64,000 nt of DNA from Apteryx mantelli (Eukaryota > Chordata > Aves > Apterygiformes > Apterygidae): NCBI RefSeq assembly GCF_036417845.1, contig NC_089990.1:4786001-4850000 (forward strand), given 5' to 3'. Below the pieces are notes generated by a model. That model ran no database searches, had not been told where the DNA came from, and saw nothing but the letters and a program-made list of their open reading frames with translations. Every line of letters starts with the position of its first letter. Within the stretch, counting starts at the first letter, position 1. The translations under genes and the position numbers were made by a program. Positions 24,801 through 59,920 of this stretch are shown here, one piece after another.

Positions 24801-27800
24801 TCTGTGTGGAGAATATTGCCATTGTTTCAAGGTTGGTATTACTGTGTTTCCATAAAGATTTTTTTATTATTATGGTCTTAAAAACCAGATGTGGATTAAT
24901 CATTTCCCCACAAAGTCACTAATTCTGGGAGGCTGTTTTCTGTGTGAAGAACACTGCCCGTGTTTCAAGGTCAGTATTATTATGTCCCCAGATAGATCTT
25001 GGGTTTTCTTTTTTTAGTTAATATATCAATGTGGATTAATACTTTCCTTCAAAGCTATTGGCTCTGAGAGGCCTTATCGATGATTCTCCTGGTGTCATGC
25101 AGCATATCACATAAACTGCAGACGCACGGACTAGAGGAAATCGCGTTGTTTGCTTTGTGGGGAGAAGCCCGGCTAAATACCCGGCGCTGCTTATGACAAG
25201 TTGCAAATAACAACTTTATTGCCGTTTCTATATGCTTCATGTCCCAAGCACCTTGCAAGGCAGTTGCACGTTGGAGGCGCTAATTCTGCGTTTGGCTGCT
25301 GCGTTTGTCACTGGCATGTTTCTTACTTATTTATTTATAATGCACGGCTGTGCATGTATTCGTCCAGGTCGTTGTGCTGAGATCCCTCCGCTGATGTGAT
25401 AAAATAGGTTAGATTCTGGCTTGGTAAGGTGAGGTGCCTGTTGTGAAAGAAATAAGTACACTCTATAGCAGTAGTTTGCCTAGCAGTTTGGATTTGATGG
25501 GGAGATTTGTGCGATTGAAAATGAGTAACTACATGCTTTATTCGCTTGTATCCATCCAGGCCCTGTAAAGGGCTATGCAATTGGTCCTGTTTGTCCTCTT
25601 TATCTATCAGAGGAGTTAATGTAGGAACAAGGAAGTTATGGTTCTGATACAATAGGAATTTTACTTGCCAACTTCTACAGGACCAAAAGAGATTGAAGTC
25701 TCACTGGCTGACTGAACATCCATACTATTTTTTTTTTTTTCCCCTCCTCTAGTCTTCGGTTTGCAGCACAAACAACCTTTCAAAACAAGAAGAGTGAATT
25801 TAACTTAAAAGCAAAAGTCTATAGACACAACAAATGCTTTCTGTCTCTGCGCAGATATAACCTTAAGTATAATCTCTGGAATGATGGGTCATGTTTGGCA
25901 GATGTTCCCCAAACTCATGGAACAAAGTCCATTTTAACAAAGGAAGATAGAAGTATTATTGGCACAGAAATACTACTCTGTTGCTTCTCATTTATTGCCA
26001 CAACTAGCTGTTACAATTAGTTCTTTAAACTGGCTGGGTCAGCCCTAGTTTTTGTGCAGTGTTTCCCCCCCCACCCCAAGTGATCAAAACTTCCCACTGA
26101 ACTGTGGGAGAACACCAGTGTTGAACTGACCCTTTAGACTTGGACTTCAGAACTAGCCCAATTTTTCTATGAGCCCAATTCAAACGTTGTGTCAAAAGAA
26201 CCACATTTGAGATGGTCAGTTTGGATCGTATCCTGCATATTATGGCTTTAGCCTTCCCATGTTTTGGTTGCTGCTCATGATTAAAAACAAAAAACAAAAA
26301 AAACCCACCAAAACCAATCTAATCTCCAACCAAAAAAATAGAAAAAAACCCTTCCCCCCAAATAGCCTTTTAAAAGGCAATATTGTAAACAGAATTTCTT
26401 CCCTGTACTTCTCTTGCACTCTCTGACTCCAAGGGGGCAGGATGCAACAGAACAAGGCAGCTATTGAACGATATTCAGATATTAGGAATTTCTTTCACCT
26501 CTTGTCCTAAGCCCACGTGGCAGCCTCCAGAAGGGGGACTCGCAAGTTAGCTTTACTTATATCGGCTGTGCAAAAACTTGTTCCTGGCTTTGTTCTACCT
26601 TGTTCTCACACATTGGTTTTGCCTGGGCCCTGTCTTCTGTCATCAGCCTTCATTGATCATAGTCTGTGCAAATGTGTAAGTGATTCAGAATCTGGGAGTC
26701 AATGAGCCAATATATTGCAGCAGACTCTGTTTTTTGCATGCTGTAGGAAAAAAGTCATTGTGCGAGGTCTCTACCCAGGGAAGTGTCTCTCTGTACTTGT
26801 AAGAACTTCTCAGTCTGCAAGGTAATGAAATAATTTCAGGGGATTCTGCTGCCACTTGAAGGACACGTTAAGTTCTCTGAAGGCCATTCACTTTTTCAAC
26901 CTGTGTTTGGTGTAGTTAAGACATTGCCTTTCTCCCTTTCCTAGGAGTGGGCATCACGATGGTCATCATCTCAACATTTGTGTCGATCTATTACAACGTT
27001 ATCATTGCTTATGCACTCTACTACTTATTTGCCTCGTTTCAAAAAGTGCTCCCGTGGTCAGACTGCTTTTTCTGGGCAGATGAGTTCTGCAGCAAAACAA
27101 AAATAGGTACGGTACTTACCAAATACAGCTTTAATATTCCTGTTTTGAACAATTACTCTTTGTGACATTTTCTGGGAAAACTTACAGGAGCAAGATGGCT
27201 ACCCATGGCACAAAAAATCCTTCCTGGAATTTTGTCTCTGAACGCATGGGAGTGGGACTTGCCCATTTCCTTTTCACCAGTTCCAGGTCCTTGTGAAATC
27301 TATAGAGAGCTGGGGTGAAGCCTCCTTGTTGGTCACCATTTTTCTCCTTTAAAATCTAAGGTTTCTTCTAACGCATACAATCCCCAGAAACACCGCCTTC
27401 CCATTTCATCAGGCTTCAAGGCAATGCAAATACCTTCCTTATATAAAATTAGAGTACTCCTATAGCTTTTATCTGGGGTTCTTCCATTACCTTTTTTGCC
27501 TGCCCACTGGCTGTGGTAGTCTGAGCACCAGTGGGGCATTGCTATTGTGCTTTATTAACTCTTCAGAACATGTCTCCATGCTATTGCTCTTGATGTTTGG
27601 CAGCATGTGTGCTGCCAAACACTTGTTATCTCACCAGGGTCCATATCAGACTAATATAAGGAAAAGGTGAAGTTGGTGAGATAACTAGCAGTAATTAGCC
27701 CATTTGGAAATGTGTTGCTGTGCAACCTCTGTTGAGATTGTTAAAATAACAGGGACAAGATAAGGGATTACATTACTTGAAGTGTTAATGTAATTGTAAC

Positions 27801-30800
27801 ACTCTGAAAAGACATTTTCGTATCTAAAGTTAAGATTTATACAACAAGAAGCTGACGCTTTATTTAACAAAAAGCTGCTGCTCTTTTTATGGGCCAAACA
27901 AAAATATTTCAGCCTAAAATTTATAGGTTCTGGAGGAATACAAAACTGAACTGAAGCAGTTACACCGAAATAGTCTGACTAGACTTTCTCAGTAAATGCT
28001 GATATAGTGCTCTTTACTGTTGAGAATGGATCATATTTATTGTATGTTCTAGCAAAACAGAAAAAAGTAAGGAAAACTTTCAAGAGATCTAATAATATGA
28101 AGTTGCTAGAGAATGACCTGTATGTAACATTGGTTTGGGACAAAGGTTTTCATAGAATAGCCAAAGCTAACATCTTTAACCATAGTCACGTCTGCTTTTT
28201 GCAAGTATCCTTTATCTTTGCAGTAAGTAAAGGTGGTGCTGAGCACACCGGATTCCTGATGTTTGAATTTACTAAGTAACACAGTCACAGCTGCAAGTGC
28301 TAGTTCAGGTTTGTTTCTAAATGTTGTTACTTTAGTAGCAAAACTAAAGCTATCACTGTTTAGAAAGCTATCTGCTAAAGTAGGATTGTTGGGTTGGTTT
28401 GTTTGTTTGTTTGTTTTAATCGCTGCATGTTAACAGTCCACTGCCTCTTTCTTTTTCTTTCTCTCTTTCAGTGAGTGACTGCAATGCAACCTTAAATGGT
28501 GAAATCATTCATGCAAACTACTCTTACATCACAAGCAACAATCTCACATGTATCAATGACACCATTACCTATAAACCAGTGCAATTTCCCAGTGAGCAAT
28601 ACTGGAAGTAAGTGTACATAAATAGAAATTGCTAAAGTGTATTTGTTTTGCATTGTGGTTTTTGAATGAATCCCTCATTTTTGTCTTATCTTACCTTCTG
28701 GAAACAGTCTAATTCAGGAGCATGGGCATGCAAATCTGTGCAGAAGGAACTTAAAATTTAACTGATAAGTCTCAGCCCTTAAAAAATAAAGCATGAATCA
28801 CAGGGGAGCAAATGAGTCAACCTGTAGCAAACTAAAAAATAATCCAGCTAAAGAAGTCCTCTCCTCTGGAGTCCCACTAGGGACTACTTAGCATCTCTAT
28901 GTACGGTACATATTGTTTCATGAGTTACTGTGTAAAATACGTTCAACCTATTCTGAATCCTGGCCTTTTGTGAAACTGCAATCTCTTTAGCCACCTGACT
29001 TGTATCTGCCTCATGTTCCTTGGGTTCCTGGGAGCTGATTCTCCTCCTTGCTGGCTCTTCTCCTGCCATGAGAATTTTATGGTTAACTTGAAAGAACCTA
29101 GGTAGGCATGATGGGAGAAGCATGGAGAATGGAGAGCTGATGGACTTTAAAGGAGAAAAACATGGGGTAAAATATTTTCAACTCTGGTAGCTCAGTTCTA
29201 ACTGTGCACTCACAAAAATTACCTCAGGGTCTCAAAATATCGGCAGAAACCTGCTCCCTCTCCCTCCAGAAGCGGTTAAGAGAAGGAGTGTGTGTTGGTG
29301 TTGCTCTCTTCTCATTGCACTGTTCTGTGTTTCAGTAAAGTGGCTCTTCAGCGCTCGAGTGGGCTGGATGAGACTGGTCACATTGTGTGGTACCTGGCGC
29401 TCTGCCTCCTCCTGTCCTGGATGATTGTTGGAGCTGCATTATTTAAAGGAATAAAATCTTCTGGAAAGGTAAGTCAGGAAGAGCTCATGACAGACTTATG
29501 GCCTGGCCTGATCCTGCCCAGCAGCACTTCCAATGTCGGCTGTAGTTAGGGAAGGTTAGCACGCAGCAGCATGCAGTTCTAACCTGCTACCCTCTGCTGG
29601 ACATAGTATTAGACTTTGTTGCTGCTCTTTACTCATGTTTTATGTGGCAGTTATGAAGCAAATGTGCTGATTACATAGCCAATAGTTAATGCACTGGTCT
29701 CTTCATTCCACCAGGGCTGCCATGCATTTGGGGATCTTGCTGTCACACGAGACATTTAGGCTCAGTTCTGGCAGTCACCTGGCCTGTTATGAAGGACATG
29801 TGCACGTGACTGCGTGCACACACCCTGGGAGCACCTATTAATTATTGGCACCTACAGACTGTTTGAGGTGTTTGGAAAATACAGGTCAAGCCCTGCAAAC
29901 AGAGGTGCATGTGCAGGTTCCTGTTGGATTGTGACATCCTGTTTATACCTGAGATTTCAGACTGCTCACAGGGACCAGGTCTATGGGTGCTTGTTTTCAG
30001 ACTCTGGCTCTGCTGAGCTCTTGATTTCCAGCTGCTCGAGCACAGCTGCCTGGAACTACCCCAGGGTTAGGTAGGCTCCTCTCCAGCCATCAGGCAGGCT
30101 GAATTTCATTCTTTCCTACATGATGCTCTTTTCCTGGTTTAGTTGCTCTCTTAACTCTGTCGTATCTCCACATCTTACTACTTTTGTCTCTGTTGCTGTT
30201 CCTCACCCTTTCTGCCCTTCCCTTCTCATTTAGCCTGCTTTTTTTCCTATGCCTTCTCTCACTGTGCCTTTCTGTGGTTCTTCTCTGCCCTTCTTCCTTT
30301 TCCTCAGTCTAACATTTCTCCTCTTCTCCTTTCTCTTTGGAGCTTTCTGCCCTCCGTCTCAGCACTTCAGGGTGGAGTATCTGTGCTTTCCCAGCCACAG
30401 TTGTTCTGCCACATGGTTCCTCTTACCCTCACATTCTTTGGGTTCCTGGGAAATGGCTCTTCCTGTTGTCACTCCTTTTCTGGCATGAAGGCAGAACTCT
30501 TCCAGGAATAGGTAAGGTAAGACTTGGGTAAGGCTTGGTGTAACCAGCAATATTGGCTCAATTATTTGTCTGCGTAACACTGAAACTAAAAATCCAGAAA
30601 GAATATTATTGAAGGCATCCTGCATGATAATAGCAGAACCCTGCTTCTGGCCTGGATCCTACTGTGCTCGAAACTATATAGACAAACAACAGCAAAATGA
30701 TGTGTGTCTGAGAGAGCTTAAAAGTCCTTGTTCCCAGCAAAGAATGCTTCCAGCATGGCTTTATTCACTTGCATCAGGAGATAATTCCATCCTGATCACC

Positions 30801-33800
30801 TGACTTTGACTGGCTTTAAGCTCTCGTTTGCTAGAAACATTGTCTATCAAGAGACCTCTGAGGTAGCCGAGTCCTTGCTGTGGCAGTAAATCATGTCTGA
30901 AGGCACATTTCTGAAACTGAGCCCTATCGCAAAAGTGGCCAGGTGGCCTGGGCCTTCTGCTTCTGACGGAATGCAGTTCTAGAACCGGCTAATCCACATG
31001 GTTAGCACTTGACACGTGTGTTCACCTCCAGTCTCACTTCCTTGATCAGTCATACTTTTCACTTGAATCCAGCAGCTTTCAGTCTAAATCCTGGTCATTC
31101 CTCGTGCCTGGGAGGGTGTGCTTTCCCTCAGTTTTCAGTGTGTCCCTGCCCTTCTTTTTACAGGTTGTCTACTTCACAGCGCTCTTTCCGTATGTCATCC
31201 TGCTCATCTTGCTGGTGAGAGGTGCCACCCTGGAAGGTGCTCGGGATGGCATTGAATATTACATTGGGAAACAGTCCAACATCACCAAGCTGATGGAGGC
31301 AGAGGTGAGGTGGTGTCAGCTCCAGAAGTGTGACACAATTCCATGGTTATATTGGCTTGCTATTTACAAAAGCCACCATATAGCTCCCTATCTTAAAGAA
31401 GAGCAGCTGCTTCTTTACCCAGTCAGATGCCTCTTTATTTCCTGCTGTGGGATCTGCATCCACAGCTGGGTTCTGGTTTTCCAGCAACTCCCAGCTCTAA
31501 GAAGTTCAAGCCCCTGTCTAGCTACTCTTAATCTAGAAAATTTTACCACCAGTTAGTGGCAACTTCCATGGCGTTGCCTCTAGAGCAGCTCTCTGGAGAC
31601 TTGCTAGAGTTTCATCCAGTGATAAACACATCACCAGGCCTGCTGAGAAAGTTCTCGCTGAGGAGTCAAGCATTGCTCTCATATCAGGTCCACTTGGTTG
31701 GGTTTGCTAATAGCTTCAAGGGACTTTATCAGAAGATTGATGGGACCTCTGAGTTGGAAAGTCAGGCCATGCCTTGCCCAGTAAATTAGCTCAGAAAAGA
31801 AGGCGGACAGGAAGGGCACTTTGTGCAAGGGAAGAAGGAGCCTAGCCTGCATTTTTGTTTAGGCTTATGCCAACATCAGTTCTGTCTGACGAAAAGCAAA
31901 GATTCAATGAGTCTGATCTGTGGTGTTTTATGTGAGCGTGAAGGGCTGCGGCAGAGGCAGCGTTAGTCTGAGCCTGACAGAAGCGATTGGGTCTTCAGGG
32001 TCATAGTGTGGGGACGGTGAGTGGGAGAGCACACACAAGTTTTCATTTCTGCAACTCTATGCTGGTTTTCCTTATACATTGGCACTGTGACAAGATTCAT
32101 ATCTGGACAACCCACATATGTGAATGAATTGAATCTCTCTTTCAAGGTTATCTTGATAAGGCTTAAGTATTCGGCAACAGACACAGGATGTTTCTATGAC
32201 CTTCCCTAGATCACAGAAGATGTTCTTTGTGTTAGAGACAGTAGGGTCACCAGCATGGTATTTTCCACTAACTCTAAAATTTTCATGAAATAAAATTTGG
32301 TATAAAGGCTAAATCTAGAAAAGCCCTGCAGCTTCCATAGAAGGACTTGAATGTTTATGATTTTTACTGTAATTAATAAAATATCTTCCTTGTTCTAATT
32401 ACTGTTAGGTTTGGAAAGACGCAGCCACCCAGATATTCTACTCCTTGTCAGTGGCGTGGGGTGGACTTGTCGCTTTGTCCTCGTACAATAAGTTCCACAA
32501 CAACTGCTACTCGGATGCTATTATAGTTTGTGTAACGAACTGCCTCACCAGCGTATTTGCTGGGTTTGCAATATTCTCTATCTTGGGACATATGGCGTTC
32601 GTGTCGGAGAGACCCGTCTCAGAAGTTGTAGACTCAGGTAGGCTGATCGTTGCACCATCAGTATCCGGACTTACTTTGACTAAAGCCTGACAATAACCTT
32701 TCATTCCACTGCATTGCAGGGTTTGATCTGGCATTTGTTGCCTACCCAGAGGCTCTCTCCAAGTTACCAGTTGCTCCTCTTTGGTCCTTTTTATTTTTCT
32801 TTATGCTTCTGCTCTTGGGCCTTGACTCGCAGTTTGCCACAATAGGTGAGTGGGGGTTTTAAGTAACCCATTGCTTTTCAACTGAAAGTTGCATTTCTTA
32901 GTTGTTCTGCCTTTATTCAAAACCCACGCTTGTTCTCTTGCAGAAACACTTACAACCACCATACAAGATATATACCCTAAACTGATGAAAAAGTTGAGAA
33001 TCCCTGTAACCCTGGGTGTGTGCATATTGCTCTTCTTTCTTGGTCTTATCTGTGTCACTCAGGTAAGACATTAAACTGTTTTTGGCAGTGGGTTTAGTTA
33101 TGCTTCAAATGACGAGTTAGTTTGCTCAGGTTAAAATATCCTTTCTTGGTGTGACAAGAACTTTCCTGCATGTATTTGAGAGAATCTTGAGTTCTATCAA
33201 TACACCTGGACATGCAAATAAGAAGTTACCATGGGAAAGGTTTGAAGAATCTAAGGTTTTCTGTGATTATGTTTTAATATATTTAATATATTATTGAGCT
33301 GAGACGCATTTTTAAATGGAAGACCTATAAATAGCCTGTCAACCATCAACCTGACTTTGCTGCTCAGTTCAGGAAACTGTTTGTGTAATATCAAGAATAC
33401 ATGTACAGAGTGTCTGCAACACTCTGGGAACTGTTACTAGATGTTGATAGAATCTTGTGTTCAGAACCGTTTACCAAAGAGCACCGCTTTTGAGAAATAG
33501 CCTATTCAAGTCATAAAGACCCATTAGATCAAAAACATCTGTAGACAGTTTGACTATTCCTTCTGAAATATGTTTATTAGAAATTTTCAGTACAGCATGT
33601 ACACTTTCTAGAGGCAATTGCTTTTAAGGGTGTAAATTTTCATCATAATGGCTATATCTAGGAACACAGATTTACATAGGTAATTGCACTGAGCATGTAA
33701 AGAAGATAGCCGTGGTGAACAGATGGTTGTATGGTCAAGCAAAGCACGTAGGATGCGAAACGAGATGACAAGGAAACTTGCAAAGGACTTAGCTCATAAG

Positions 33801-36613
33801 AGTATGAGACGGTATAAAGCTTGTTCTGTGTTTCTGCTATTGCATACTGGTATTTAAAGCTGTGTTTAACCCGCGTGAGAAACTTGTGTGTGAGAGAGTA
33901 TACAAGCCTACTAGAACTGATACCTGGTACAGCTACTCCTGTAGATCCTTATTAAAGTATCAGCTTTAGTACGGTAAGTTACAAATTTGAATCTTGCTAT
34001 CAGCTGTTTATATATATTTTGCATATGCATATATCTAGTTGTTAATATACAGATCTGCAGTATTTCATCAGGTGCGTTCTTCAACTTTACACAGAGATAT
34101 TTGAATGAAATAATGTTCACCGATCTGTACCTAACCCAGACAATCGGGAATTTCAAAAACTTACTGCCGATTATTTAAATTGGCTTAAACAACACAACTT
34201 AATCTATTTGCATAAAAAGTTACTAGGTTTGGGTATATCTTTACCTGTTTATTCTTTGTTCTACAGGCAGGAATTTACTGGGTTAACCTAATAGATCATT
34301 TCTGTGCTGGATGGGGAATCCTTATTGCAGCTGTCCTGGAAATAATAGGCATCATCTACATTTACGGTAAATTATGTAAATCAAAAAACCCTGAACTGAC
34401 AATACAAACAATCCCAGGCACGTTGTATATTAAATATAAATTTCTGCAATAAAATGCTTATAACATCTTAACTCTTAAAGCCTCTCACCCAATTATCACA
34501 GAATTGGGGAAGTTGACCTTGACCATTCTGTCCCCTTCCTTCTATTGTTCTTGAGTAACTGCACCGGCATGATAGATGCCTACTTTACAGTATATTATAT
34601 GACTGTCTTTCAACAGGAGGAAACAGATTTATTGAAGATGTTGAAATGATGATTGGAAAGAAGAACTGTTTATTCTGGTTGTGGTGGAGGGTGTGCTGGT
34701 TTTTCGTTACTCCTGTGCTCTTAACTGTGAGTGTAAATGGCTGAATTATGTTAGTGTCACACAACTTACGCATTTGATATTAAACAGGCTTCCATGTAAA
34801 GATTCAGGCCTGAATTTCCAGGCCTTACGTATACAGATAAGACATGGCTGAGCCAATGGAGCAACCCACAGGCTATCTCTTTCCAATATATACCGCTGTG
34901 GCTTAGGTCATTTCCAGGGGAGGTCAGGCCTTCAGAGCAGTTACTAATGAGCTGGGTCTACAGTCCCAGGAGTAACATGCAGCAATCGGACTAGCAGCTG
35001 GTTTCTCTTCATTTCAGACTGAAAAAACATGTTGAAAACCTAGAATTTCCCATTGGAGAGAAATCCCATTTTCTGGGACAGATCCATGGCTCTTCGGATG
35101 TCTAGCTGTTCTCCTGTCTCACTGAGCTCCTTCTTTGTCCTGTCATGTTCTTCTCAGTTTTAGTAGGTGCAGTATCTGAGGGGAAAAAAACACAAACAAA
35201 ATGTCACAAGCCCAGGAGCAGTGACAAGTTGTTCTGGCCACAACATTATCTTTAATCTCTCCAGAGATTAAAGGAAATGCTTCTTATTCTTGCAGATGTA
35301 AGATATATATATTTGCCAACATTTCTTCTCCTATAAATATAGGACTAAAACAAAAGGAGAAAGGTACTAAGTTCATTCAACAAAGCATATACTCTCCGAG
35401 ATAAGAATTGAATAGAACCCAGAAGTTTATTTCTGTTTAAACATTAAGATGTAATTAAAGTGTTGGGCTGCTTAACACTGTTGTTTTTCAGTTCTGTCCT
35501 TCAGTCTTACTGTTAGGCCATGTTTGAATACCAAATCCTGCACAACAAATCTCATATTTGGAAAGCAAGAGGGAGCTGTGCAGAATTTGCAGCCAGTCCT
35601 ATAGTGACTAACTTGGAAACAGTGTTCAATACAAGTTCAGGTCACTTTGAAATCAGCTTTTTTCCCCTCAATTTTTTTTCTTTTTTAATAGGCAATTTTG
35701 GTCTGGTCTCTGGTCACATTTTCAACTCCCAGTTATGGCTCCGTTTTGTATCCAACATGGGGAACTGCTGTTGGCTGGTGTATGATTATCTTCTGTGTCA
35801 TCTGGATTCCCATTGTCGCTATTGTAAAGATAGTTAGAGCTGAAGGAAACCTGTGTCAGGTAAGGGCACAAAACCCCAGCTCTCATAGACTCAAATCTTG
35901 CTCTCCTTGGCATGATCAGGAAAGCTTGTGCTCTCTTCTCAAGAGCTTGTTCAATACCTGGAGATTTTCATTAACTGGATTTTTAGACCAAAACACATCT
36001 TTGCTAGTTGCACCAGAGGCAAATTCACCCTGCTGTGTTCTGATATGAAGATAAAGTCTGATTCCCTGGGAGTACACCCACATATTCAGTAGTGATTTTC
36101 CTGGTTTCTGTTATTATTCCAGCTGCTTTAAATTCTCTGCAGAACTTAAACAAAAAATGATTTAAGTTTTGCCTCCCATTCCTCCCTGATATCAGCAAGT
36201 CCAAGATCCGAGGCATATGCTTCTTGCCGGGCTTTGCCAAAGAGCGCTGTTGATCATAGCTCTCCCTGCTTGTTTAATTTCAGTGACTAGAGTCCTCTGA
36301 AACCAAGGACATTTGGAACCCTTAAAAACAAAGAAACCAGAAAAGTAGTTTGCTTGCTATTTGTGGAGTTGCAGGGCATATTAAATGTTACACCTTTACT
36401 TAACGGAAAAGAACGCAGGACTAAGATAAGACATTAAATGCCTCTTTTGTTCTCGCTTTCCAGCGCATTGCAAACTGCTGCAGGCCAGCCGCAAACTGGG
36501 GTCCCTATCTGGAATGTCATCGAGGAGAAAGATACAGCCATATTGTAGATCCCCAAAAGGAAAAAGAACATGAGATCCCCACTGTGTCTGGCTTCGTGTA
36601 CAAACGAGAATGA
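21794..36613 (+). CDS. SLC6A14: SLC6A14, Na+/Cl- dependent amino acid transporter B0,+ (14 coding exons)
   Basis: Joining 14 exons, all with GT-AG borders and compatible phases, gives 1923 nt, i.e. 640 aa plus stop; mammalian SLC6A14 is about 642 aa. The product is a 12-TM plasma-membrane symporter of the neurotransmitter-sodium-symporter (SLC6) family that imports neutral and cationic amino acids in epithelia. Visible hallmarks are the TM1 motif [17 protein letters not shown] (residues 59-75) and the EL2 cysteine pair C157/C165 after LPW. TM6 [16 protein letters not shown] (321-336) follows, then TM8 LGLDSQF of the Na2 region (416-422). EL2 carries four N-glycosylation sequons (N175, N186, N194, N199). 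The tail shares HEIPTVSG with the mammalian protein but ends GFVYKRE. M1 is chosen as the first ATG after the TATA-like box; M3 is possible. There is no frameshift or missing catalytic segment. The per-exon calls below give the coding segments. Confidence 0.96.
21842..22650 (+). other. SLC6A14 intron 1, GC-rich degenerate minisatellite
   Basis: An 809-bp intron. It opens with a 20-G homopolymer (21866-21885). It then carries a degenerate repeat built on GGGCACCTGGGCAGGT-like units to about 22.4 kb. CAGGT occurs at least ten times (21921, 21969, 22032, 22104, 22143, 22162, 22201, 22221, 22272, 22399). No separate gene is seen. Confidence 0.75.
21866..21885 (+). repeat. 20-G homopolymer
   Basis: An uninterrupted run of 20 G, 25 nt inside SLC6A14 intron 1. 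It could form G-quadruplexes in DNA or pre-mRNA and is prone to sequencing and assembly length errors. Confidence 0.9.
22651..22819 (+). CDS. SLC6A14: SLC6A14 coding exon 2 (TM1)
   Basis: Encodes residues 17-72 plus one base. It covers the end of the N-terminal tail ([19 protein letters not shown]) and TM1 with the family signature [12 protein letters not shown]. The acceptor is CCAAG|GAC and the donor is GGAG|GTACCT. The split Gly codon joins exon 3. Confidence 0.96.
22820..24699 (+). other. SLC6A14 intron 2
   Basis: 1880 bp of unremarkable intronic DNA with a T run near 23828. No further exon or repeat family is recognised. Confidence 0.7.
24700..24831 (+). CDS. SLC6A14: SLC6A14 coding exon 3 (TM2)
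   Basis: Encodes residues 73-116 plus one base, [20 protein letters not shown] through [10 protein letters not shown]. This completes the GGGAF signature and forms TM2 and the first intracellular loop. The acceptor has a strong T/C tract. The donor AAG|GTTGGT is weak at +3 to +5. The 3' half is tandemly duplicated just downstream (see separate entry). Confidence 0.96.
24777..25072 (+). repeat. Tandem duplication of exon 3 3' end with its donor
   Basis: A unit of about 138-140 bp that begins inside exon 3 is repeated once. The TTTCAAG|GT exon/donor junction at 24832 recurs at 24970. TTTCTGTGTGGAGAATATTG recurs as TTTCTGTGTGAAGAACACTG. TGTGGATTAAT at 24890 recurs at 25030. A fragment of a third unit start follows at about 25045-25072. 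In the copy the Trp codon TGG is TGA, so the duplicated exon piece is not coding. The copy donor is GTCAGT. Confidence 0.85.
25073..26944 (+). other. Remainder of SLC6A14 intron 3
   Basis: Intronic DNA with T runs (about 25729) and an A/C-rich low-complexity patch at 26281-26365. No other exon is seen. Confidence 0.65.
26945..27106 (+). CDS. SLC6A14: SLC6A14 coding exon 4 (TM3, start of EL2)
   Basis: Encodes residues 117-170 plus one base. TM3 ([20 protein letters not shown]) is followed by [17 protein letters not shown] and the EL2 disulfide cysteines C157 and C165. The Y-x(4)-S-F...LPW-x-x-C part of the second SLC6 signature is present. The acceptor is CCTAG|GA and the donor is ATAG|GTACGG. 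Confidence 0.96.
27107..28471 (+). other. SLC6A14 intron 4
   Basis: 1365 bp. A (GTTT)n tract lies at about 28400-28418, and the acceptor has a long pyrimidine tract. Nothing else is recognised. Confidence 0.65.
28472..28607 (+). CDS. SLC6A14: SLC6A14 coding exon 5 (glycosylated EL2)
   Basis: Encodes residues 171-215 plus two bases, the variable extracellular loop 2. Four N-linked sequons (NAT, NYS, NLT, NDT) lie within about 27 residues, and the exon ends in the conserved FPSEQYW. This is the least conserved exon against the mammalian protein as I recall it. The donor is AA|GTAAGT. Confidence 0.94.
28608..29335 (+). other. SLC6A14 intron 5
   Basis: 728 bp. The part at about 28960-29100 resembles a segment of intron 6 (about 30380-30500), sharing a TGGGTTCCTGGGA core. 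Family unknown. Confidence 0.5.
29336..29468 (+). CDS. SLC6A14: SLC6A14 coding exon 6 (TM4)
   Basis: Completes N216 and encodes residues 217-260: [14 protein letters not shown], then TM4 ([20 protein letters not shown]) and FKGIKSSGK. The donor is AAG|GTAAGT, phase 0. Confidence 0.96.
29469..31163 (+). other. SLC6A14 intron 6
   Basis: 1695 bp, with pyrimidine-rich DNA at about 30150-30350. It contains the second copy of the intron 5 repeat-like segment near 30.4 kb. No exon is seen. Confidence 0.6.
31164..31304 (+). CDS. SLC6A14: SLC6A14 coding exon 7 (TM5)
   Basis: Encodes residues 261-307. TM5 ([20 protein letters not shown]) is followed by the conserved ATLEGA segment and extracellular loop 3, which has an NIT sequon at N299. 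In phase 0 at both ends; donor GAG|GTGAGG. Confidence 0.96.
31305..32408 (+). other. SLC6A14 intron 7
   Basis: 1104 bp. The acceptor tract is AT-rich and weak (ending ACTGTTAG). Nothing else is recognised. Confidence 0.65.
32409..32637 (+). CDS. SLC6A14: SLC6A14 coding exon 8 (TM6-TM7)
   Basis: Encodes residues 308-383 plus one base. The unwound TM6 substrate/ion region ([19 protein letters not shown]) is followed by IL3 and TM7 ([20 protein letters not shown]), then ILGHMA. The serines in SLSVAWG correspond to the SLC6 chloride and sodium site region. This is the largest exon and is intact. Confidence 0.97.
32720..32845 (+). CDS. SLC6A14: SLC6A14 coding exon 9 (EL4, TM8)
   Basis: Encodes residues 384-425 plus one base: [17 protein letters not shown], then TM8 ([19 protein letters not shown]). 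D419 and S420 lie in the Na2 site motif. It is separated from exon 8 by only 82 bp and from exon 10 by 98 bp. Confidence 0.97.
32944..33062 (+). CDS. SLC6A14: SLC6A14 coding exon 10 (TM9)
   Basis: Completes E426 and encodes up to Q465: [19 protein letters not shown], then TM9 ([19 protein letters not shown]). The donor is CAG|GTAAGA, phase 0. Confidence 0.96.
33063..34266 (+). other. SLC6A14 intron 10
   Basis: 1204 bp, AT-rich. No exon or recognised repeat. Confidence 0.65.
34267..34366 (+). CDS. SLC6A14: SLC6A14 coding exon 11 (TM10)
   Basis: Encodes residues 466-498 plus one base: [20 protein letters not shown] followed by [14 protein letters not shown]. This is TM10, lining the extracellular gate. 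The donor is G|GTAAAT. Confidence 0.96.
34617..34726 (+). CDS. SLC6A14: SLC6A14 coding exon 12 (TM11)
   Basis: Encodes residues 499-535: [16 protein letters not shown], then TM11 ([20 protein letters not shown]). In phase 0 at its end; donor ACT|GTGAGT. Confidence 0.96.
34727..35691 (+). other. SLC6A14 intron 12
   Basis: 965 bp. Nothing recognised beyond a strong pyrimidine tract before the acceptor. Confidence 0.6.
35692..35859 (+). CDS. SLC6A14: SLC6A14 coding exon 13 (TM12)
   Basis: Encodes residues 536-591: the end of TM11, loop [15 protein letters not shown], then TM12 ([20 protein letters not shown]) and VRAEGNLCQ. In phase 0 at both ends. Confidence 0.96.
35860..36463 (+). other. SLC6A14 intron 13
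   Basis: 604 bp. Nothing recognised. Confidence 0.6.
36464..36613 (+). CDS. SLC6A14: SLC6A14 coding exon 14 and stop
   Basis: Encodes residues 592-640 and TGA: the cytoplasmic C-terminus [20 protein letters not shown], then [19 protein letters not shown] and [10 protein letters not shown]. The [12 protein letters not shown] and HEIPTVSG blocks are strongly conserved in SLC6A14. The last seven residues differ from the mammalian end. Confidence 0.96.
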   Translation, partial: RIANCCRPAANWGPYLECHRGERYSHIVDPQKEKEHEIPTVSGFVYKRE

Positions 36614-39175: not shown

Positions 39176-39540
39176 TCAAGCCGGGGCTGCGCGGAGGTGC
39201 GCTGGCCAGCAGAGAGCAGCGCGGGCTCGCCGCTTTCCCGGCTCCGCTCCCGCACGGAGGGCGAAGGCCGGCCGTGGGTCTGGCCCTGCCGTGGGTCCGG
39301 CCCCGGCCGCGCTCGCCACATCGTCCGCGGAGCAGCCTTAAAGCTGAGTCATTTGGCGCTTGCTCCTGCCTGACCGATGGCTGCCGAACGGCGCCCGAGC
39401 TTCGAATCGGACCTGCCCTATCGAAAGGTCTTTTTTCGTGTTCCAGATGTTTGCAGAAGATACCCGGTGCTCTCGTGCGACACCCACGCAACTCTGAGCC
39501 GAGCGTTGCGGTAACAACGCGGCCGCTCCGTTAAAACCAC
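39176..39540. promoter_or_regulatory. Orphan CpG-rich block
   Basis: About 360 bp of abruptly CpG-dense DNA in an AT-rich surround, typical of a promoter or enhancer CpG island. It contains a TGAGTCA (AP-1 type) site at 39345-39351. A start codon at 39377 opens a 45-codon frame beginning MAAERRPSFESDLPYRK, which I do not recognise. It could be an unlisted first exon, a lncRNA promoter or an enhancer. Strand unknown. Confidence 0.4.
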
Positions 39541-48959: not shown

Positions 48960-49140
48960 AAACCTGTCGCGTCCTCGCAGCGCTCTGAACACCGCGCTGC
49001 GCTTCCCGGGTCCTGCGATCGCCACTGCTTGGGTACGGCGCTTCATCAGCCGCCCCGTAACGAAGCCCGTCTCCAGCAGTCCCCGCATGTTTCAGCCCAT
49101 CGGTATGCGGCCGCCGTGCGCGCCAAGTCACCCTGCCCGG
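48960..49140. promoter_or_regulatory. Short CpG-rich patch
   Basis: Roughly 180 bp rich in CpG (including GCGATCGC and GCGGCCGCCGTGCGCGCC-type sequence) within ordinary intergenic DNA. It may be a small CpG island or enhancer. No start codon context or exon is convincing. Confidence 0.3.
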
Positions 49141-52100: not shown

Positions 52101-53170
52101 AAGCCAAATCGGTGCTTGCTCACCCTTTGGATTTAAGGGCATTGGCAGGGAAAGCGGACAAAATATATAATATTGGGAATACTGGCTGCTGGTCCAGTGC
52201 AGTGGTGTGTATAGCTTTTTATTAGCTTTCTCACGCTGCAGTCAAATTCACCCTAGCACGCTGAGCATCCCCAGTGCGAGCGATGCCAGTAAAATTTGGG
52301 GACAAGTAACTGCTTTTGTGGTTTCATGGGGACTTGTCTGTCTTTTCGCACTTCCTAAATGCTGGCGTAATAAATCCTGAAGTGCTTTCTCACTCGCAGC
52401 GGACGTGATTAATATAGCTGTTAGCTGGTGCCACTTTCAGAGGAAACAATTGACAACCCCTAGGTGGATAAGCACCGGAGGCCTGAAAACCCAACCATTT
52501 TCTCTGCATTTGAGAAGTGAGGAGATGCAATAAAAGCGATAATTCCTTCGCTTGAAATTCAGACTTGGACACGAGGTAAAAACAGTGACCTTTGCTGTGA
52601 GAGTTTCAGAGAATGCCTTTTAAAGCAAAAATGGTTTCAAAGCCAAAATTGAAGTAGCTGTTTGTTGAGGTGAGCCGCTACTTTTTTTTTTAAGTGTTTG
52701 GAAAACATTTCGAGTGGGTGACCTTGGTGCCAATAAACAACTTTGGCACCGAGTCAGCCAGGGCATCCTTGATGTTCGGGAGCTTTTCTGAATGTGACCT
52801 CGGCCGGCTCTGCAAGGCAACAAGTGGACCTGCGAGTCCTCCCGGGTGCGCTGAGCCCTGCACGCTTCATCCTGTGAGTGTACCATTCCCCCTCTGCACG
52901 GGGCATCTCCCTGCAGCAAAATCGTGAGCAGGACACGAGTATCCTCGGTGACTTTATCGGGTTTCCACTCTGCTTCTTTCAGCATAATCAGCTCCACTGA
53001 TTTCCGCTTGTTTGCTGCAGAGTTTGCAGCTGGAAGCTCAAACTGCCATTTATTTTCTGTATGGGTTCCTAATCTGGAAATGGATCTTATTTGCCTTACT
53101 GAATTACAAGAAAATTAAGCTAAACACATTGCGTTATGCCCGGATGCATTGAGGGGTTTTCATGAAAAGA

Positions 53171-53182
53171 GGGGGGGGGGGA
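53171..53182 (+). repeat. G-run
   Basis: A run of about 12 G followed by an A tract in intergenic DNA. Simple sequence, with no associated feature. Confidence 0.8.
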
Positions 53183-54539
53183 AAAAACCCACAGTTGTCA
53201 TTACTGCAAGTTTCTGCTTTCCTCAGTATCAATAACTTTATATTTTTCAGAACATGAAATCTCTATAAACGGCAGAGTTTTTCCTTGGGGCCAGGCACTG
53301 GGTAGCTCGAGCTGCATCTGTCTCATGTCTTTCATCGCCCCAGCCCTTAAAGAACATCCTTGCAAACATCCCGAGCTGTGTTCCCTTGCATTGCCTCCCC
53401 TCGCACTTCGGCACGCTTTCATTATCTGCAGTATTGCATTTGATAGTACTATTAAACAGTTCGTAACACTTTCCTTTTGGCAACAGCTTCTTCTCTTTTG
53501 AATGGAAATGTTCTTCCTGGCTCTAAATCACCTTTCGAGCCTGCTGTGTCTAAGCAGCATCAATACTCCAGTGCTCCGAATGAGACGCGGATTTTGCGTT
53601 TTCATTTCCTGACCCATCAGGGAGAATTTTGTGCAAAATGCAGAAGGAGGAATGCCAAGCTGATAAAATAGCATTGTTTCTGGTTTGCTCTCTGGTTAGC
53701 ACAGCTGACAAGATGGAAAACATCCAGCACAGTTCAGACTTCGTGGAGGCTGAATTCGAAGAGGGCAAATGCTTTGTATGTTCTGCTATGTTTACATGAC
53801 CGCATCTGCTTGCTGGCAAATACTACATCTGCTGATGTTTTAAAGTGTTTTCCTTAGTTTACCAATTTAAAGCTAATCTGAAATATATTTTAGCTCTTGG
53901 AAAGTTTGCTGTCTGAATCTGGGACCGTCATGATCACAGGACGAGCTTCCACTCTGCATTTATCATTGCAAACATCAGCTTTAGTGACCGGGTCCTGGAA
54001 AGCAAGCAAACCTGATGATTTTAGCCAAGTACCTGGGGAGGGCGGAGGCTTATGTCGCTAGTCACAAAGCAAATAACTCCAGAGATAAGCACTCGAAGGA
54101 CTGAGACCTCTGGCTGCGTTGCTCTTGTCTTTGAAAATGCTCTAAGAAAACTGACTTCTGGAGCACCTGTTTTGGTATTCACAACGCCTTTGTTTTTTCA
54201 CATACAAGATCTTTGTGAAGAAATGAATGAGTAAAGCAATTTTAATTCTAGTTCAGGATTACTGATTTTCTTTTTTTTCCCCTTTTCCAACCCGTGTTTA
54301 TTCTGAGACAGCAGAAAAGCCTTTCCTCTTCAAAAAAGTCTGTTCAACACGACTGATCTGCAAGATTATTTTTTTAGCTGAGAACAATTAAGAGCTCCCA
54401 AAGCTTAACTGGCTGCGATGATTAGCAGTTACTAAGACCGTCTTTGGCAAAAATGGAGCAGTGTCGTATTTTAGCCCTAACATAGGAAAGAGTAAGGAAA
54501 AAAACTTTAAACGCCTATTTACTAGCCTGTGGGGCTCTT

Positions 54540-54771
54540 CCGGAGCCTGCGCTGCCTCGCTCAGGGAGGCGAGCGGGGCCGGAGCGGGTGTTATCTCTGG
54601 CCGCGTAACTCGGAGGGTGTGTCTTCTTGGCGAACGCTGGCAATAAATTTAGCTAGTCACCCTGACGCAGGCAATGGAGGCGGAAACACGTGATGCTCCC
54701 CGCTCGCAGGAAGCGCTGCTCTTCCGTGAGCAACCCCTGGCCTTTGAGGCTGCTGCTGGCCCGTCGGCGCG
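54540..54771 (+). promoter_or_regulatory. FAM162-like gene promoter region
   Basis: CpG-rich DNA begins at about 54540 and runs through exon 1. A CACGTG at 54687-54692 contains the hypoxia-response core ACGTG, and a second ACGTG lies inside exon 1 at 54887-54891. AATAAATTTA near 54643 is a possible weak TATA-like element. Upstream ATGs at 54674 and 54693 are out of frame with the main ORF, so the true transcription start may lie downstream of them, or they may act as uORFs. The start site is inferred. Confidence 0.5.
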
Positions 54772-54934
54772 ATGCTGGGGAGGCTCCTGGCTGGCAGCCC
54801 TGGGCGGTGGTGGCCGGTGGCTCGGTTGCGTGTCCGGGATCCCCGTGCTGCTCTCCCGTTCCCACGCCCTGGGAGAGGGTTTGGCGACGTGGCAAGGGGC
54901 CCACAGGACGCTGCTTCCCGGACGGCAAATCCAG
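54772..54934 (+). CDS. FAM162-like coding exon 1 (targeting peptide)
   Basis: Encodes residues 1-54 plus one base, starting MLGRLLAGSPGRWWPVARLR, with ten Arg and no Lys. The donor CCAG|GTGGGT leaves one base of a codon, completed by CT at the exon 2 start to give Ala. No strong family identity exists in this part, as expected for a presequence. Confidence 0.78.
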
Positions 54935-57900
54935 GTGGGTAGCAATGCTTTGGTCGCTGCTTCGTGCGGTGCAGAGGGGGGGTTATCTACAGCGACCTGC
55001 GAGGAAGTGACCCTTTTTCCTCTCCGTGGCTGTGTCAGTGCAGTGCTGTGTCCCCTGGGGTTATAAACGCTCCTCAGACACCGAGTGACTCGAGGGACCA
55101 GGCTAGCACGGCTTAAGACTTCGCCTTTTACATAGCGTTCCTTCTACAGTGGCTAATGCAAAACCGATGCTTCATGTCAGGAAATCTGCCAAGGACAAAA
55201 AAATAACTTTCCTTTGGTTTTCCGAGGGGGGATGTGAACCACGTGGGGATGCAATGCCCCATCCTTCGTCAGAGATAAGAGGAGGGCTGCGAGCTCGGAC
55301 AGGGAGCTGGGCTGGCTCGGCCCCGGCAGCCTGCAGGGTGGATTCATCGCTCCTTTGGTGTGAAAGATGGGGTTGTGTCCACGCCTGGGCATCCTCCTGC
55401 CTGCTTCTCTTTTTAATCCGTGCCACCACAGCTCTGGCTTTGCAGGCTTCTTGCCCAGGGACCACCTGGCGTGTCTGGCGAGCAGGGCAAAGATGCCCTT
55501 TCCCAGCGCTCCTGTGGGATCGCTGCAGGCCTCTGGCACAGGGCTTTGCCCTCTGGAGTGAAACCTGCCCTCTTAGGCACCTGTCCTGCTGCTTGCTGTG
55601 GATGAGATTTAGACTCTTCCTGGTGTTCAAGGCAGCTCTCCTGGTCTCCGAGGCACTCTGTGGCAGCAGCGACAGAAATGGGAGAAGCTGGAGATTAAAT
55701 ATACCTGGTGGTATGGGTGCCAAGGTTTATAACTGGAATCGTTTTTTGAGGTTTTCCTCTCACGCAAGCACCAGCAGTCCAACAACAACCGGGGAGCGTG
55801 GGGCAGCGGGAGCCGGAGCCCGGGCACCTTGCTTGCACCCCTTCCCCTGTGCCCTGGGCACCCGTTGGGCATGCTGAAGCTCCTGTCCCGTGTTTGCAAG
55901 CACAGGCATCGTCATCTGGGGCCTGGCTTTGCCCTGCCTGGGTGCACAAGTCCCAGCCGCCTTGCAATGCTCTTCCCTTATGGATGCGCAATGCGGAAAC
56001 CAGGCATAGCACTGCCGTGGGATTTGGGCTGGCCATTGCTTACTCTATTTTAGCAGTGGTCTCGCTGCTGCCAGCCTGATGCTGGGATTATTTTCATTAA
56101 GAGATGCTGGAGTCCCTTTCTCACCGCGCAGCGTGGTGGCATCGCCTTGGCATCAGCTGTATCGCAGCAGCCCTTGCCTCCATTGGCGCTCTCGGGGCAG
56201 GGAGGCCAGCAAGTAGTTGTTAGTGCTGTGGACAGTTTGTTCAACCTAATAGTTGGGCTGTTGAATCCTACTAACATTAAAAAGTGTATCTGGCTCTTAA
56301 GGAATAAAATAAAAAAAAAAAAAGCAATTCTGAACCTTCAGCCTTTTTGCCCACTTCACTGTAGCTTTTTTTTCATCTTCTCCAATTTAAACTTGGCTCA
56401 CAGCTTTCTTTCAAAATATCTCTTACAGCTTATCAGCCGTTCAAAAATGACAGAAGGCCTACGAATTTCGATAAAAAGGTGTTGGTATGGGCAGGACGCT
56501 TTAAAAGGGAGGAGGAGATTCCCGCCCTGATATCGTAAGTAGACCTGTGCTCTCTCCTGGGAAACCCTTTTTGCCTGGATGATGCTTTTGGATGTGAATG
56601 CACAGATTGAAACTCCAGCCTGGGCTGTGGTCAGAAGTGTGCTCATGGGATGAGGAGGACTGTGTGGTGTGGGCATCACACAGGTGGGCTGCTACCGCTA
56701 CTGGCATCCCAAAATAATCCGAACTTTTGGAAGCATGAAGTTTTGGTCAGCTCCTGTGAAGGAAACTGGATTCAGTTGCTTTAGATATCAGAAATTTCAC
56801 ACTAAGATGAATTGTCTTTTGTAAAATGAGTGAATTTAGCTCAGAAGTCACTGGGGTAAAATATTCATTTTGGGTTTTGCATGCTTTGCTGGTTTTTAAT
56901 GATTAGCAATTAATAATGATGCGTGAATTTGAAGACAGCTGGGGCTATCTACAGCATTAGCGGCAGACATCTGCTGGGAGTTCCTTGCACCTAGCCTACG
57001 GTTTCATGTCCTTGTTGAGGTATTTTCTTGAAGGATTGCCACTCATTGCCGGAGACCTAATGCTGCCTGACTTGTAACATCCTGGGGGCTCTTCCAGCTG
57101 GTGTTCCCCTTGCAGATGTGATTAAAGTCACAGCTGGATGCCAGTTCATGAGCGACTTAAGTTGTCACACTAAAGGCTTGCGCAAGCACCACCTGTCACA
57201 GATGTCAGGAGTCGCTTGCGGGAGGTGGCAGAGATTTCTCAGCGATAGCTGTGGCTGTTCAGTAGCTTGGTGACACATCTCCAGGTGGATCGTGGAGCTG
57301 CCGGCCTCCAGGCTCAGCCTCTGCTGGCAGTAACATCCCCGGGCTGCCCGGTCCTGCAGGAGTTGGGTCTTGGGGACACCACGACCCGCTGCAGTCCCCA
57401 CGTGGCTCCTGTGGCATTCACGTGGGACAACATGACAAACTGGCTGATGGCTGGTGCCTTGGCCAAGCACGTGCACATCTGTTCCCATGGCTGTGCCGAG
57501 CAGGGGGGGCTGCAGCCCTGCATGCAGCCAGGATGGGAATACAGCCCCGGACCGCAGCAACACTTGCTGTGCTGCTATCTGCGAGAAAATTCGCTGTTGC
57601 TTTTAGCCCAAACGTCATGCAGGTGCTCTTGCTGCAGCGAGGCAGCATTGCCCAGTGCTGGCTGGCCGCCCACCTGCCGTGGGTGTCTCCCGGTGCAGCC
57701 GCCGCGGACATCTCCTGGCGCCGCACAGCGCCCTGGGCGCTGCTGCGTGACACCCAGGGGTGTGCCCCTGCTAATGTCCCTGCTGCAATGAAAGGGTGTT
57801 TCTGCCCTTGCGGTTTATCAGCTGTTCACTCTCACACACATTGAATGAAGTCACAAGAGCAGGATGTGTCACTGTTGACAGCAGCAAGACCCCACCTGTG

Positions 57901-59255
57901 TGGGGTTTGACTAAATCTTGCATATGTTTTTTTTGAATCCTCCTACAAGCACCTGAAGAAAGAGAAAGCAGAAGAGCATTGTATATAAATAGCTAGTTGC
58001 TGGAAGGATTTGGGATTCATTATCCAGCTCTCCACTGTCTCTTGCTTTACCCTTGCTGCTGCGGGATGGAAACTCTGCTCTGTTCTCTGCAGGTCCGAGG
58101 TCCTCGATGCCGCAAGGAACAGCGTGAGGATAAAAGTTTGTTACATCATGATTGCGCTGACCTTGCTAGGCTGTTTGGCCATGGTAGTCTCGGGCAAAGA
58201 AGTGAGTATTTTTTTGGAGTGAGGGGAACTGTCCCACTTCATACAGGCTCTATGTATGTTCTCTTTTTAAATAAACACCCGGGTGAGACAAAGATTTTAA
58301 GAAAAAGTCTGCATTAGTAATACTTGCAGGGGAGTTGCCACCACCACGTTCTTTGGGGGACAGATGGGCTTTGGCAAGTGCTGCTGGCTGGTTAACACAT
58401 TCCTCTTGACCCACTTTGCCATAATCCAATGCACTGCAATGCCCTATATATTGGTATCTTGGGGAAAGTCTGGTCCAAAGGTTACGGAATAACTCGGACA
58501 ACGTCAGCAGATTTTGGAGCAGGCTGCAAATGCGGCAGTCCTGATGTGCTCCCCTGCTTTGGAGACATCAGCAGTCCCACCTTGCCCAGCTGCTGCAGGA
58601 GATGGGGCTCCTCCTGGCCGTCTTGCTGGGGACGTTGCCTTTGTCCATCATGTCTCCCAAAAGCTGTTGTATTTGCTTCTCCCATTCTGCTGGTGGGGAA
58701 GGAGGGTCTCTAACTCCTGGCATCGACTATCATGTCCCAGCCACACATGCTGGGCAGCAGGCAGGAGCCCCCAGGTGGAGCAGCTGGGTCCAGTGCAGAT
58801 GGGAATGGTGACCTGATGCCCTGGCCAAAATCAGCTGAGCAAACAGTGATGATGGAAAGCAAAAAAGCAATTCAAGAGCCTCTCTGAATCTGAGTTTTCA
58901 TCACTGAAAGCCCTACCATTTTTCCTAGCTGCTCATGCATCTCTGTATACAATACGCAGTACAATTTTTTTCTGCTAATTGGAAGCTACAAATGCTGACA
59001 ACTTGGTAAAGAAAGGAAACACATTAACTTCTTGCATTGCAAAATATTAAAAAGAACAGTGGGGATCAAAGCAAGTGGTGCAAAGGAGGGGAAATTTATT
59101 GATGGGAAATGTTTCCGTGCAATGATTTTCACCGTTTATTTTCCAAGGCTGCTAAAAAGGATCACACACTGCTGAGGATGAATATAGAAAAGAAGGCCAA
59201 ATGGAGGGCCGAAGCAGAGAAAGATCGGGAGGCAGCTGTTGAGACGCCACAATGA
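54772..59255 (+). CDS. FAM162-family mitochondrial membrane protein (4 coding exons)
   Basis: Exons 54772-54934, 56429-56534, 58093-58201 and 59148-59255 join with matching phases (1, 2, 0) and GT-AG borders to give 161 aa. Human FAM162A and FAM162B are about 154 and 162 aa. The N-terminus (residues 1-54) is Arg-rich, Lys-free and without acids before D23, like a mitochondrial targeting peptide. Residues 63-86 hold the family core RRPTNFDKKVLVWAGRFK then REEEIP. Residues 91-104 (SEVLDAARNSVRIK) precede one membrane span, VCYIMIALTLLGCLAMVVSG (105-124). A charged tail (127-161) contains NIEKKAKWRAEAEK. FAM162A (HGTD-P) is a hypoxia-induced, pro-apoptotic mitochondrial protein; a similar role here is inference. 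Residues match FAM162A at some sites and FAM162B at others, so I assign no symbol. The ATG is the first in frame after a TGA at 54745. Confidence 0.88.
54935..56428 (+). other. FAM162-like intron 1
   Basis: 1494 bp, GC-rich in its first kilobase. Long open frames there (e.g. 242 codons at 55149-55877) look like composition artefacts. No other exon is recognised. Confidence 0.6.
56429..56534 (+). CDS. FAM162-like coding exon 2 (family core motif)
   Basis: Encodes residues 55-89 plus two bases, YQPFKNDRRPTNFDKKVLVW then AGRFKREEEIPALI. The pattern [DQ]KK[IV]L[LV]W-x-GRFK-x-x-[ED]EIP is the most diagnostic FAM162 block. The acceptor is CTTACAG|CT and the donor is TC|GTAAGT. Confidence 0.92.
56535..58092 (+). 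other. FAM162-like intron 2
   Basis: 1558 bp, GC-rich between about 57.2 and 57.8 kb, where overlapping open frames on both strands have no recognisable homology. No exon is seen. Confidence 0.6.
58093..58201 (+). CDS. FAM162-like coding exon 3 (transmembrane)
   Basis: Completes S90 and encodes up to E126: SEVLDAARNSVRIK followed by the membrane span VCYIMIALTLLGCLAMVVSG and KE. Family members have [IM]-x-LDAA/DTARNK and MIxLT at the same places. The acceptor is CTCTGCAG|G and the donor is GAA|GTGAGT, phase 0. Confidence 0.93.
58202..59147 (+). other. FAM162-like intron 3
   Basis: 946 bp. Nothing recognised. Confidence 0.6.
59148..59255 (+). CDS. FAM162-like coding exon 4 and stop
   Basis: Encodes residues 127-161 and TGA: AAKKDHTLLRMNIEKKAKWR then AEAEKDREAAVETPQ. 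It corresponds to the charged tail of the family (x-L-x-KKA-[KR]-x-R-E-E-A). The acceptor is TTTTCCAAG|GCT. Confidence 0.9.
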   Translation, partial: AAKKDHTLLRMNIEKKAKWRAEAEKDREAAVETPQ

Positions 59256-59920
59256 TCGAGAACAGATTTATTTTAACAGCAGGAGATAAGTGTTTTTGCA
59301 CACACGGCATATGTACCTGTCTTCATTTAACTCTTCGGATCTTTCTCCCTGCAACTCTCTTGGGGCAAAGATGTCATTGCTTAAAAATTGCTCAATATGA
59401 GCTGTGAAAACTCCTATGGAAATTCCAGCAGATGCTTTCTGTGGCCTCTGGTCTTTGCCACTGGGTTCAGCTGAAATACAAAAATCTCATCTGCTGACTG
59501 GAAATTGGGATGGGTGCAGGACCCCCCCAGTTCAGGCTCAGCTCTGTGAGGCGCCGCTGACGTTCTGTGTGGCCACCACAGTGTCTTCTCTGCACCAGGA
59601 AAGATGTAGCCCGACATCAGGGAGCACCTGAGTCCACAAAATTCCTCTGACAACAGGCTTGGCCAAAATCACGAAGAGGTCAATTATGTCTCTACCTCTG
59701 AGCCTGCTGCACCTCTCTGGTTTTGCTTTTTGATCTTCTAGTTCGGGGTGTTGTCATAAAAGTTCCCCAGCACTTTAGTTGTGGTTTTAGTCAGGATGGA
59801 TTGTTAATACATGGTTTGCTGAAATTGGGTTCTTTTTAATCATCATAGTTCATTAATTCATAATAAAACAGCTGTCCAATTACATCTAAAATAAACGCAT
59901 CTCTTCACAGCTTCATTTAA
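59256..59920 (+). other. Probable FAM162-like 3' UTR
   Basis: Non-coding DNA from the stop codon to two AATAAA signals at 59862-59867 and 59890-59895. No earlier canonical AATAAA was noticed. The extent is inferred. Confidence 0.45.
59862..59895 (+). terminator. Candidate poly(A) signals of the FAM162-like gene
   Basis: Two AATAAA hexamers 28 bp apart, about 600-640 nt after the stop codon. The downstream GT element is not striking. Confidence 0.4.

What the first reader, a model, noticed from the sequence alone, without database searches (positions are those of the whole stretch)
54772..59255. A multi-exon FAM162-family gene downstream of SLC6A14
Four small exons, none obvious as an ORF, join in perfect phase to a 161-aa protein with the FAM162 core, one membrane span and a charged tail. 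As I recall, human FAM162A (chr 3) and FAM162B (chr 6) are not near SLC6A14 (Xq23). Diagnostic positions are a mix of the two (FAM162A-like LDAA, MIALT and GC; FAM162B-like RRP-x-x-FDKK and AKWR). This could be a third paralogue kept in sauropsids and lost in mammals, or a translocated copy.
Basis: partly seen in the sequence, partly recalled or inferred. Interest (0 to 1): 0.72.

Follow-up and report, generated by a model that had tools for sequence, protein, structure and literature searches.

The report
Third FAM162-like mitochondrial gene beside SLC6A14
A small, intact four-exon gene of the FAM162 family of mitochondrial membrane proteins lies next to an amino-acid transporter gene, and it is probably an extra family member that a finch annotation already lists as 'FAM162B-like'.

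Summary
Exons 54772-54934, 56429-56534, 58093-58201 and 59148-59255 join through GT..AG introns (phases 1, 2, 0) into 161 codons. The protein matches Pfam DUF1075, the FAM162 family, at E=9.8e-44. Exons 2 and 3, scanned blindly, abut on that profile. The upstream + strand gene is an SLC6 transporter, SLC6A14 by recalled human sequence; no other Pfam family was found between them.

It is probably neither FAM162A nor FAM162B: published tables list chicken FAM162A with CCDC58/KPNA1 on chromosome 1 and FAM162B with GPRC6A/KPNA5 on chromosome 3. Over 88 core columns it shares 46 with recalled human A and 47 with B, which share 45.

It may already be annotated: 'Protein FAM162B-like' LOC102037655, ground finch, placed on 4A, near a painted-bunting molt SNP.

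Its age and loss in mammals are untested: no vertebrate sequences were in reach and the own-genome search was unanswered (14 tries). Likely role: inner-mitochondrial-membrane protein like FAM162A. Ordinary gene, modest interest.

The parts
54501..55250 (.). CpG-island-like stretch over the presumed promoter and exon 1
   Evidence: GC 0.60-0.64, CpG observed/expected 0.72-0.80 in two overlapping 500-bp windows
54772..54934 (+). Coding exon 1 (residues 1-54 and first base of the next codon): basic N-terminus, presumed mitochondrial targeting region
   Evidence: Open in frame, donor gtgggt; upstream in-frame stop at 54745, 10 R+K against 3 D+E in residues 1-54
56429..56534 (+). Coding exon 2 (DUF1075 profile 64-92)
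   Evidence: Alone matches PF06388, E=1.1e-9 in a 3332-residue frame; splice sites
58093..58201 (+). Coding exon 3 (DUF1075 profile 93-128), with the membrane span
   Evidence: Alone matches PF06388, E=4.5e-13; hydropathy 2.42 over residues 105-123
59148..59255 (+). Coding exon 4 with stop codon, charged C-terminal tail
   Evidence: Part of the joined PF06388 match, profile 63-155 of 158; acceptor tccaag; not listed when scanned alone
59862..59895 (+). Two candidate poly(A) signals, AATAAA at 59862 and 59890
   Evidence: Pattern only
22669..36592 (+). Upstream neighbour: SLC6-family transporter, most likely SLC6A14
   Evidence: PF00209 hits; best solved relatives are GlyT2 chains; 13 pieces located, 463 of 599 aligned residues identical to human SLC6A14 as recalled from memory

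Best explanation
This is an intact, spliced, protein-coding member of the FAM162 (DUF1075) family, distinct from FAM162A and FAM162B and next to SLC6A14. Its product is most likely imported into mitochondria by its basic N-terminus and anchored in the inner membrane by the span at residues 105-123. By analogy with FAM162A it would help to keep cristae and OPA1 balance, and so respiration and stress survival. Shown here: gene structure, family membership, SLC6 neighbour. Supported by published chicken maps plus recalled sequence: being a third family gene, and the neighbour being SLC6A14. Inferred: import, location, function, expression.
For: Exons, phases and open frame; PF06388 E=9.8e-44; exons 2 and 3 abut on the profile; start, CpG island, poly(A) patterns and hydropathy. 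SLC6 neighbour, no other Pfam family at E<=0.01 in six frames of 36601-54800. Chicken FAM162A is listed on GGA1 among CSTB, CCDC58, FAM162A, KPNA1 (PMC12937304, table passage) and FAM162B on GGA3 among RFX6, GPRC6A, FAM162B, KPNA5 (PMC8130382, table passage), so both known genes have other homes in a bird. Core identities Q-A 46, Q-B 47, A-B 45 of 88 with recalled human sequences. LOC102037655 'Protein FAM162B-like', ground finch annotation, placed on 4A in zebra finch order (PMC9842746, passages). FAM162A: inner membrane, cristae, OPA1 partner (PMC13158519, abstract and passages).
Against: No RNA evidence. The species of the window is unknown to me; that it is a bird is an inference. That 4A and the SLC6A14 region correspond is recalled, not shown; the one paper holding SLC6A14 and 'zebra finch' gave no position in the passage seen. 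FAM162A's paper reports two membrane segments, whereas hydropathy shows one clear one here, so topology is uncertain. Twelve core columns shared by A and B differ here, 8 of them in the last 22 columns, which could mean altered function or fast evolution.
Confidence: 0.8

Rival explanations
1. It is this species' FAM162A or FAM162B, moved to the SLC6A14 neighbourhood, so that the genome still has only two family genes.
For: A and B were not seen in this genome, because the own-genome search did not complete (14 tries, listed in Tried and rejected). The finch gene bears the name 'FAM162B-like'.
Against: In chicken A and B are listed in their own neighbourhoods on GGA1 and GGA3. The protein is no closer to recalled human A (46 of 88) or B (47) than these are to each other (45); an orthologue should be clearly closer to one.
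Confidence: 0.1
2. It is a lineage-specific DNA-level duplicate of FAM162A or FAM162B in birds or sauropsids that kept its introns and then evolved fast: a third gene, but not an ancient third paralogue (a sub-case of the best explanation).
For: Introns exclude a retrocopy but not a segmental copy. It departs from A and B at 12 core columns where these agree, as a fast-evolving copy would.
Against: Shared residues split evenly (13 only with A, 14 only with B), with no sign of descent from one of them; but three unrooted sequences cannot settle age.
Confidence: 0.4
3. It is a decaying or silent copy that happens to be open.
For: No transcript data here.
Against: Full-length open frame and intact splice sites, CpG island and poly(A) patterns; a gene of the same family name exists in a finch annotation.
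Confidence: 0.05

Closest known systems
Protein FAM162B-like, LOC102037655, Geospiza fortis annotation (placed on chromosome 4A)
   Same: Same family by name, in a bird, not on the chromosomes listed for chicken FAM162A or FAM162B; may well be the orthologue of this gene
   Different: Its sequence and neighbours were not seen here; its name puts it with FAM162B, which the equidistance of the present protein does not support
FAM162A (HGTD-P / E2IG5, names recalled)
   Same: DUF1075 family; shares LDAA, MIALT and GC with it (recalled human sequence; MLDAAK also read from a printed siRNA)
   Different: Other neighbourhood in chicken (CCDC58, KPNA1); 46 of 88 core residues identical to recalled human A
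FAM162B
   Same: DUF1075 family by recall; shares RRP--FDKK and AKWR with it (recalled human sequence); described as a predicted single-pass mitochondrial protein (PMC4364714, abstract and passages)
   Different: Other neighbourhood in chicken (GPRC6A, KPNA5); 47 of 88 core residues identical to recalled human B

Membership tests
FAM162 family (Pfam PF06388, DUF1075; that this Pfam family is FAM162 is recalled) | Match to the curated profile above its gathering score | tested here: met
   149.3 bits against cut-off 25, E=9.8e-44, profile 63-155 of 158
FAM162 family (Pfam PF06388, DUF1075) | Hydrophobic span in the conserved core | tested here: met
   Best 19-residue hydropathy 2.42 at residues 105-123; best window starting before residue 81 or after 131 only 0.23
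FAM162 family (Pfam PF06388, DUF1075) | Mitochondrial inner-membrane location | not testable with these tools
   Only a basic N-terminus was counted (10 R+K, 3 D+E in 54 residues)
FAM162A orthologue | Place beside CCDC58 and KPNA1, as listed for chicken | tested here: not met
   Upstream neighbour is an SLC6 transporter; chicken list from PMC12937304. Only 4.7 kb downstream of the gene are in the window
FAM162A orthologue | Closer to FAM162A than FAM162A is to FAM162B | tested here: inconclusive
   46 of 88 against 45 of 88 with recalled human sequences: no excess, but no database sequence and no tree
FAM162B orthologue | Place beside GPRC6A and KPNA5, as listed for chicken | tested here: not met
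   Upstream neighbour is an SLC6 transporter; chicken list from PMC8130382. Only 4.7 kb downstream are in the window
FAM162B orthologue | Closer to FAM162B than FAM162B is to FAM162A | tested here: inconclusive
   47 of 88 against 45 of 88 with recalled human sequences
Ancient third FAM162 paralogue lost in mammals | Own clade in a tree, linked to SLC6A14 in several vertebrate classes, absent from mammals | not tested
   No vertebrate sequence collection in reach; the genome search on the own genome did not complete (14 tries)
SLC6 transporter family (upstream neighbour) | PF00209 match | tested here: met
   E-values 3.6e-21 to 8.6e-52 in single frames
SLC6A14 (upstream neighbour) | Closer to SLC6A14 than to other SLC6 members | tested here: inconclusive
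   463 of 599 residues identical to human SLC6A14 recalled from memory; best named solved relative GlyT2 at 619.4 bits over 553 query residues; no chain named SLC6A14 among the 60 of 76 shown. Strong lead, but resting on recall

The most novel reading that the evidence does not exclude
A third vertebrate FAM162 lineage, as old as the A/B split and anchored beside SLC6A14, that survives in birds (and perhaps other non-mammals) and was lost in mammals; birds would then have three cristae-organising FAM162 proteins where papers count two.
Probability: 0.35. Interest if true: 0.45.

Novelty: new member of a known kind. Interest (0 to 1): 0.3.

Why it matters
One paper describes the family as having two members (PMC7708497, passage). 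A third gene would matter for reading FAM162 function in hypoxia, cristae shape and OPA1 control outside mammals. If LOC102037655 is its orthologue, it would also give a likely role to the 'FAM162B-like' locus that holds a SNP from the painted-bunting molt association study. It changes no general principle.

Tried and rejected
Retrocopy: rejected, three introns. Chance assembly of exons: rejected by the profile E-value and by exons 2 and 3 abutting on the profile. Second copy in the window: none better than E=0.17. Solved structure of a relative: none; best phmmer hit E=0.42 to a flagellar protein. Upstream gene being GlyT2 itself: thought unlikely at 619.4 bits over 553 query residues; the list also held chains named only 'Transporter' between GlyT2 and GlyT1. 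Stray relatives in viral contigs (0 of 15 pattern matches confirmed) and in prokaryote genomes (0 of 244). RNA families: none at gathering score. I considered a whole-genome-duplication origin from recalled human map positions; chicken FAM162A lies on GGA1, which did not fit what I recalled, and I did not pursue it.

Not scanned with Pfam: 1-20000 on either strand and the minus strand of 20001-36600.

Paper searches (10 of 10 used): FAM162A or FAM162B 278 papers, 40 listed; FAM162C, FAM162-like, FAM162A-like and 'HGTD-P paralog' none, FAM162B-like two; SLC6A14 with AGTR2, synteny and chicken none; FAM162 with chicken 17; FAM162B with SLC6A14 none; a six-term neighbour search 5, none a bird paper by its title; FAM162 with zebra finch 2; SLC6A14 with zebra finch 1; FAM162A, ohnolog, KPNA1, synteny 384, 12 listed, none used further; FAM162B with bird 4. 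Papers of which I saw passages: PMC13158519 (also its abstract), PMC7708497, PMC9842746, PMC9330239, PMC12937304, PMC8130382, PMC11275010, PMC6912898, PMC11744720, PMC7040864, PMC4364714. Of these PMC9330239 (an icefish 'FAM162B-like' protein mapped to zebrafish fam162a), PMC11275010, PMC6912898, PMC11744720 and PMC7040864 did not help. All others were seen in listings only.

Full report
Observation. Joining 54772-54934, 56429-56534, 58093-58201 and 59148-59255 gives 486 nt, 161 residues and a stop; all three introns are GT..AG with phases 1, 2 and 0. The protein matches Pfam PF06388 (DUF1075) with E=9.8e-44. When 54001-64000 of the + strand was translated blindly in three frames, exon 2 matched profile positions 64-92 and exon 3 positions 93-128, in different frames, so the predicted junction falls where the profile requires; exon 4 was not listed alone at E<=0.1. 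There is an upstream in-frame stop at 54745, a CpG-island-like stretch at 54501-55250, and two AATAAA sites, the first about 600 bases after the stop codon. A search of the window with the protein returned its own exons and then nothing better than E=0.17.

Surroundings. The upstream + strand gene spans at least 22669-36592. It carries PF00209; its best solved relatives are GlyT2 chains, then chains named only 'Transporter', then GlyT1. At 619.4 bits over 553 query residues it is unlikely to be GlyT2 itself. Thirteen pieces match human SLC6A14, as I recall that sequence, at 463 of 599 residues. Six-frame Pfam scans of 36601-54800 found nothing at E<=0.01, so the two genes are neighbours on the same strand, about 18 kb apart, as far as Pfam can see. 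Downstream only 4.7 kb remain in the window; the minus strand of 54001-64000 showed only hits below the curated cut-offs. The first 20 kb of the window were not scanned with Pfam.

Which family member? No vertebrate sequence collection was available, and the search of the window's own genome was unanswered 14 times, so this rests on three weaker lines. First, published tables list chicken FAM162A on GGA1 in the run CSTB, CCDC58, FAM162A, KPNA1 (PMC12937304, passage) and FAM162B on GGA3 in RFX6, GPRC6A, FAM162B, KPNA5 (PMC8130382, passage); each known gene therefore has another home in a bird. That is a star, as for three lineages of similar depth, or for a fast-evolving copy. Third, PMC9842746 (passages) lists LOC102037655, 'Protein FAM162B-like', from the medium ground finch annotation, placed on chromosome 4A in zebra finch order, with a molt-associated SNP; its table puts the SNP in intron 2 while its text says 'within the coding region'. 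I recall, but did not show, that 4A corresponds to the part of the mammalian X that holds SLC6A14. If so, LOC102037655 is probably the orthologue, and the gene is already in annotation under a B-like name. The paper searches for FAM162C, FAM162-like, FAM162A-like and 'HGTD-P paralog' found no paper, and one paper states that the family has two members (PMC7708497, passage).

How it most likely works. FAM162A is reported in the inner mitochondrial membrane, mainly in cristae, interacting with OPA1 and supporting cristae structure and respiration (PMC13158519, abstract and passages). FAM162B was described as a predicted single-pass mitochondrial protein of unknown function (PMC4364714, abstract and passages). 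The protein here has a basic N-terminus (10 R+K, 3 D+E in 54 residues) and one strong hydrophobic span at 105-123, followed by a tail rich in K, R, E and D. I infer import into mitochondria and a role like that of FAM162A; none of this was tested.

Verdict. A real, ordinary gene, probably a third FAM162 family member in this lineage, and perhaps already annotated in another bird. Whether it is ancient and lost in mammals is open. I put 0.8 on its being a distinct third gene (of which 0.4 for a younger duplicate) and 0.35 on its being an ancient paralogue lost in mammals.

Noticed in passing
window 22669-36592 (+): SLC6A14-like transporter gene; 13 coding pieces located, exact splice sites not refined, C-terminal piece with [11 protein letters not shown] at 36464-36592.
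   Followed up: partly
window 63548-63619 (-): Weak match to PF21797 (Cyclin-T2-like C-terminal), E=0.0037 and below the curated cut-off; probably chance or low complexity.
   Followed up: no
window 36601-54800: About 18 kb without any Pfam family in six frames at E<=0.01 between the two genes.
   Followed up: yes
exon 4, window 59148-59255: The stretch that is RHETLTS / RHESLTS in recalled human A and B reads KDHTLLR here, a local cluster of changes in an otherwise conserved tail.
   Followed up: no
window 55613-55659 and 61410-61440: Two short tandem arrays (period 21, 2.2 copies, in intron 1; period 12, 2.6 copies, downstream); nothing suggests that they matter.
   Followed up: no
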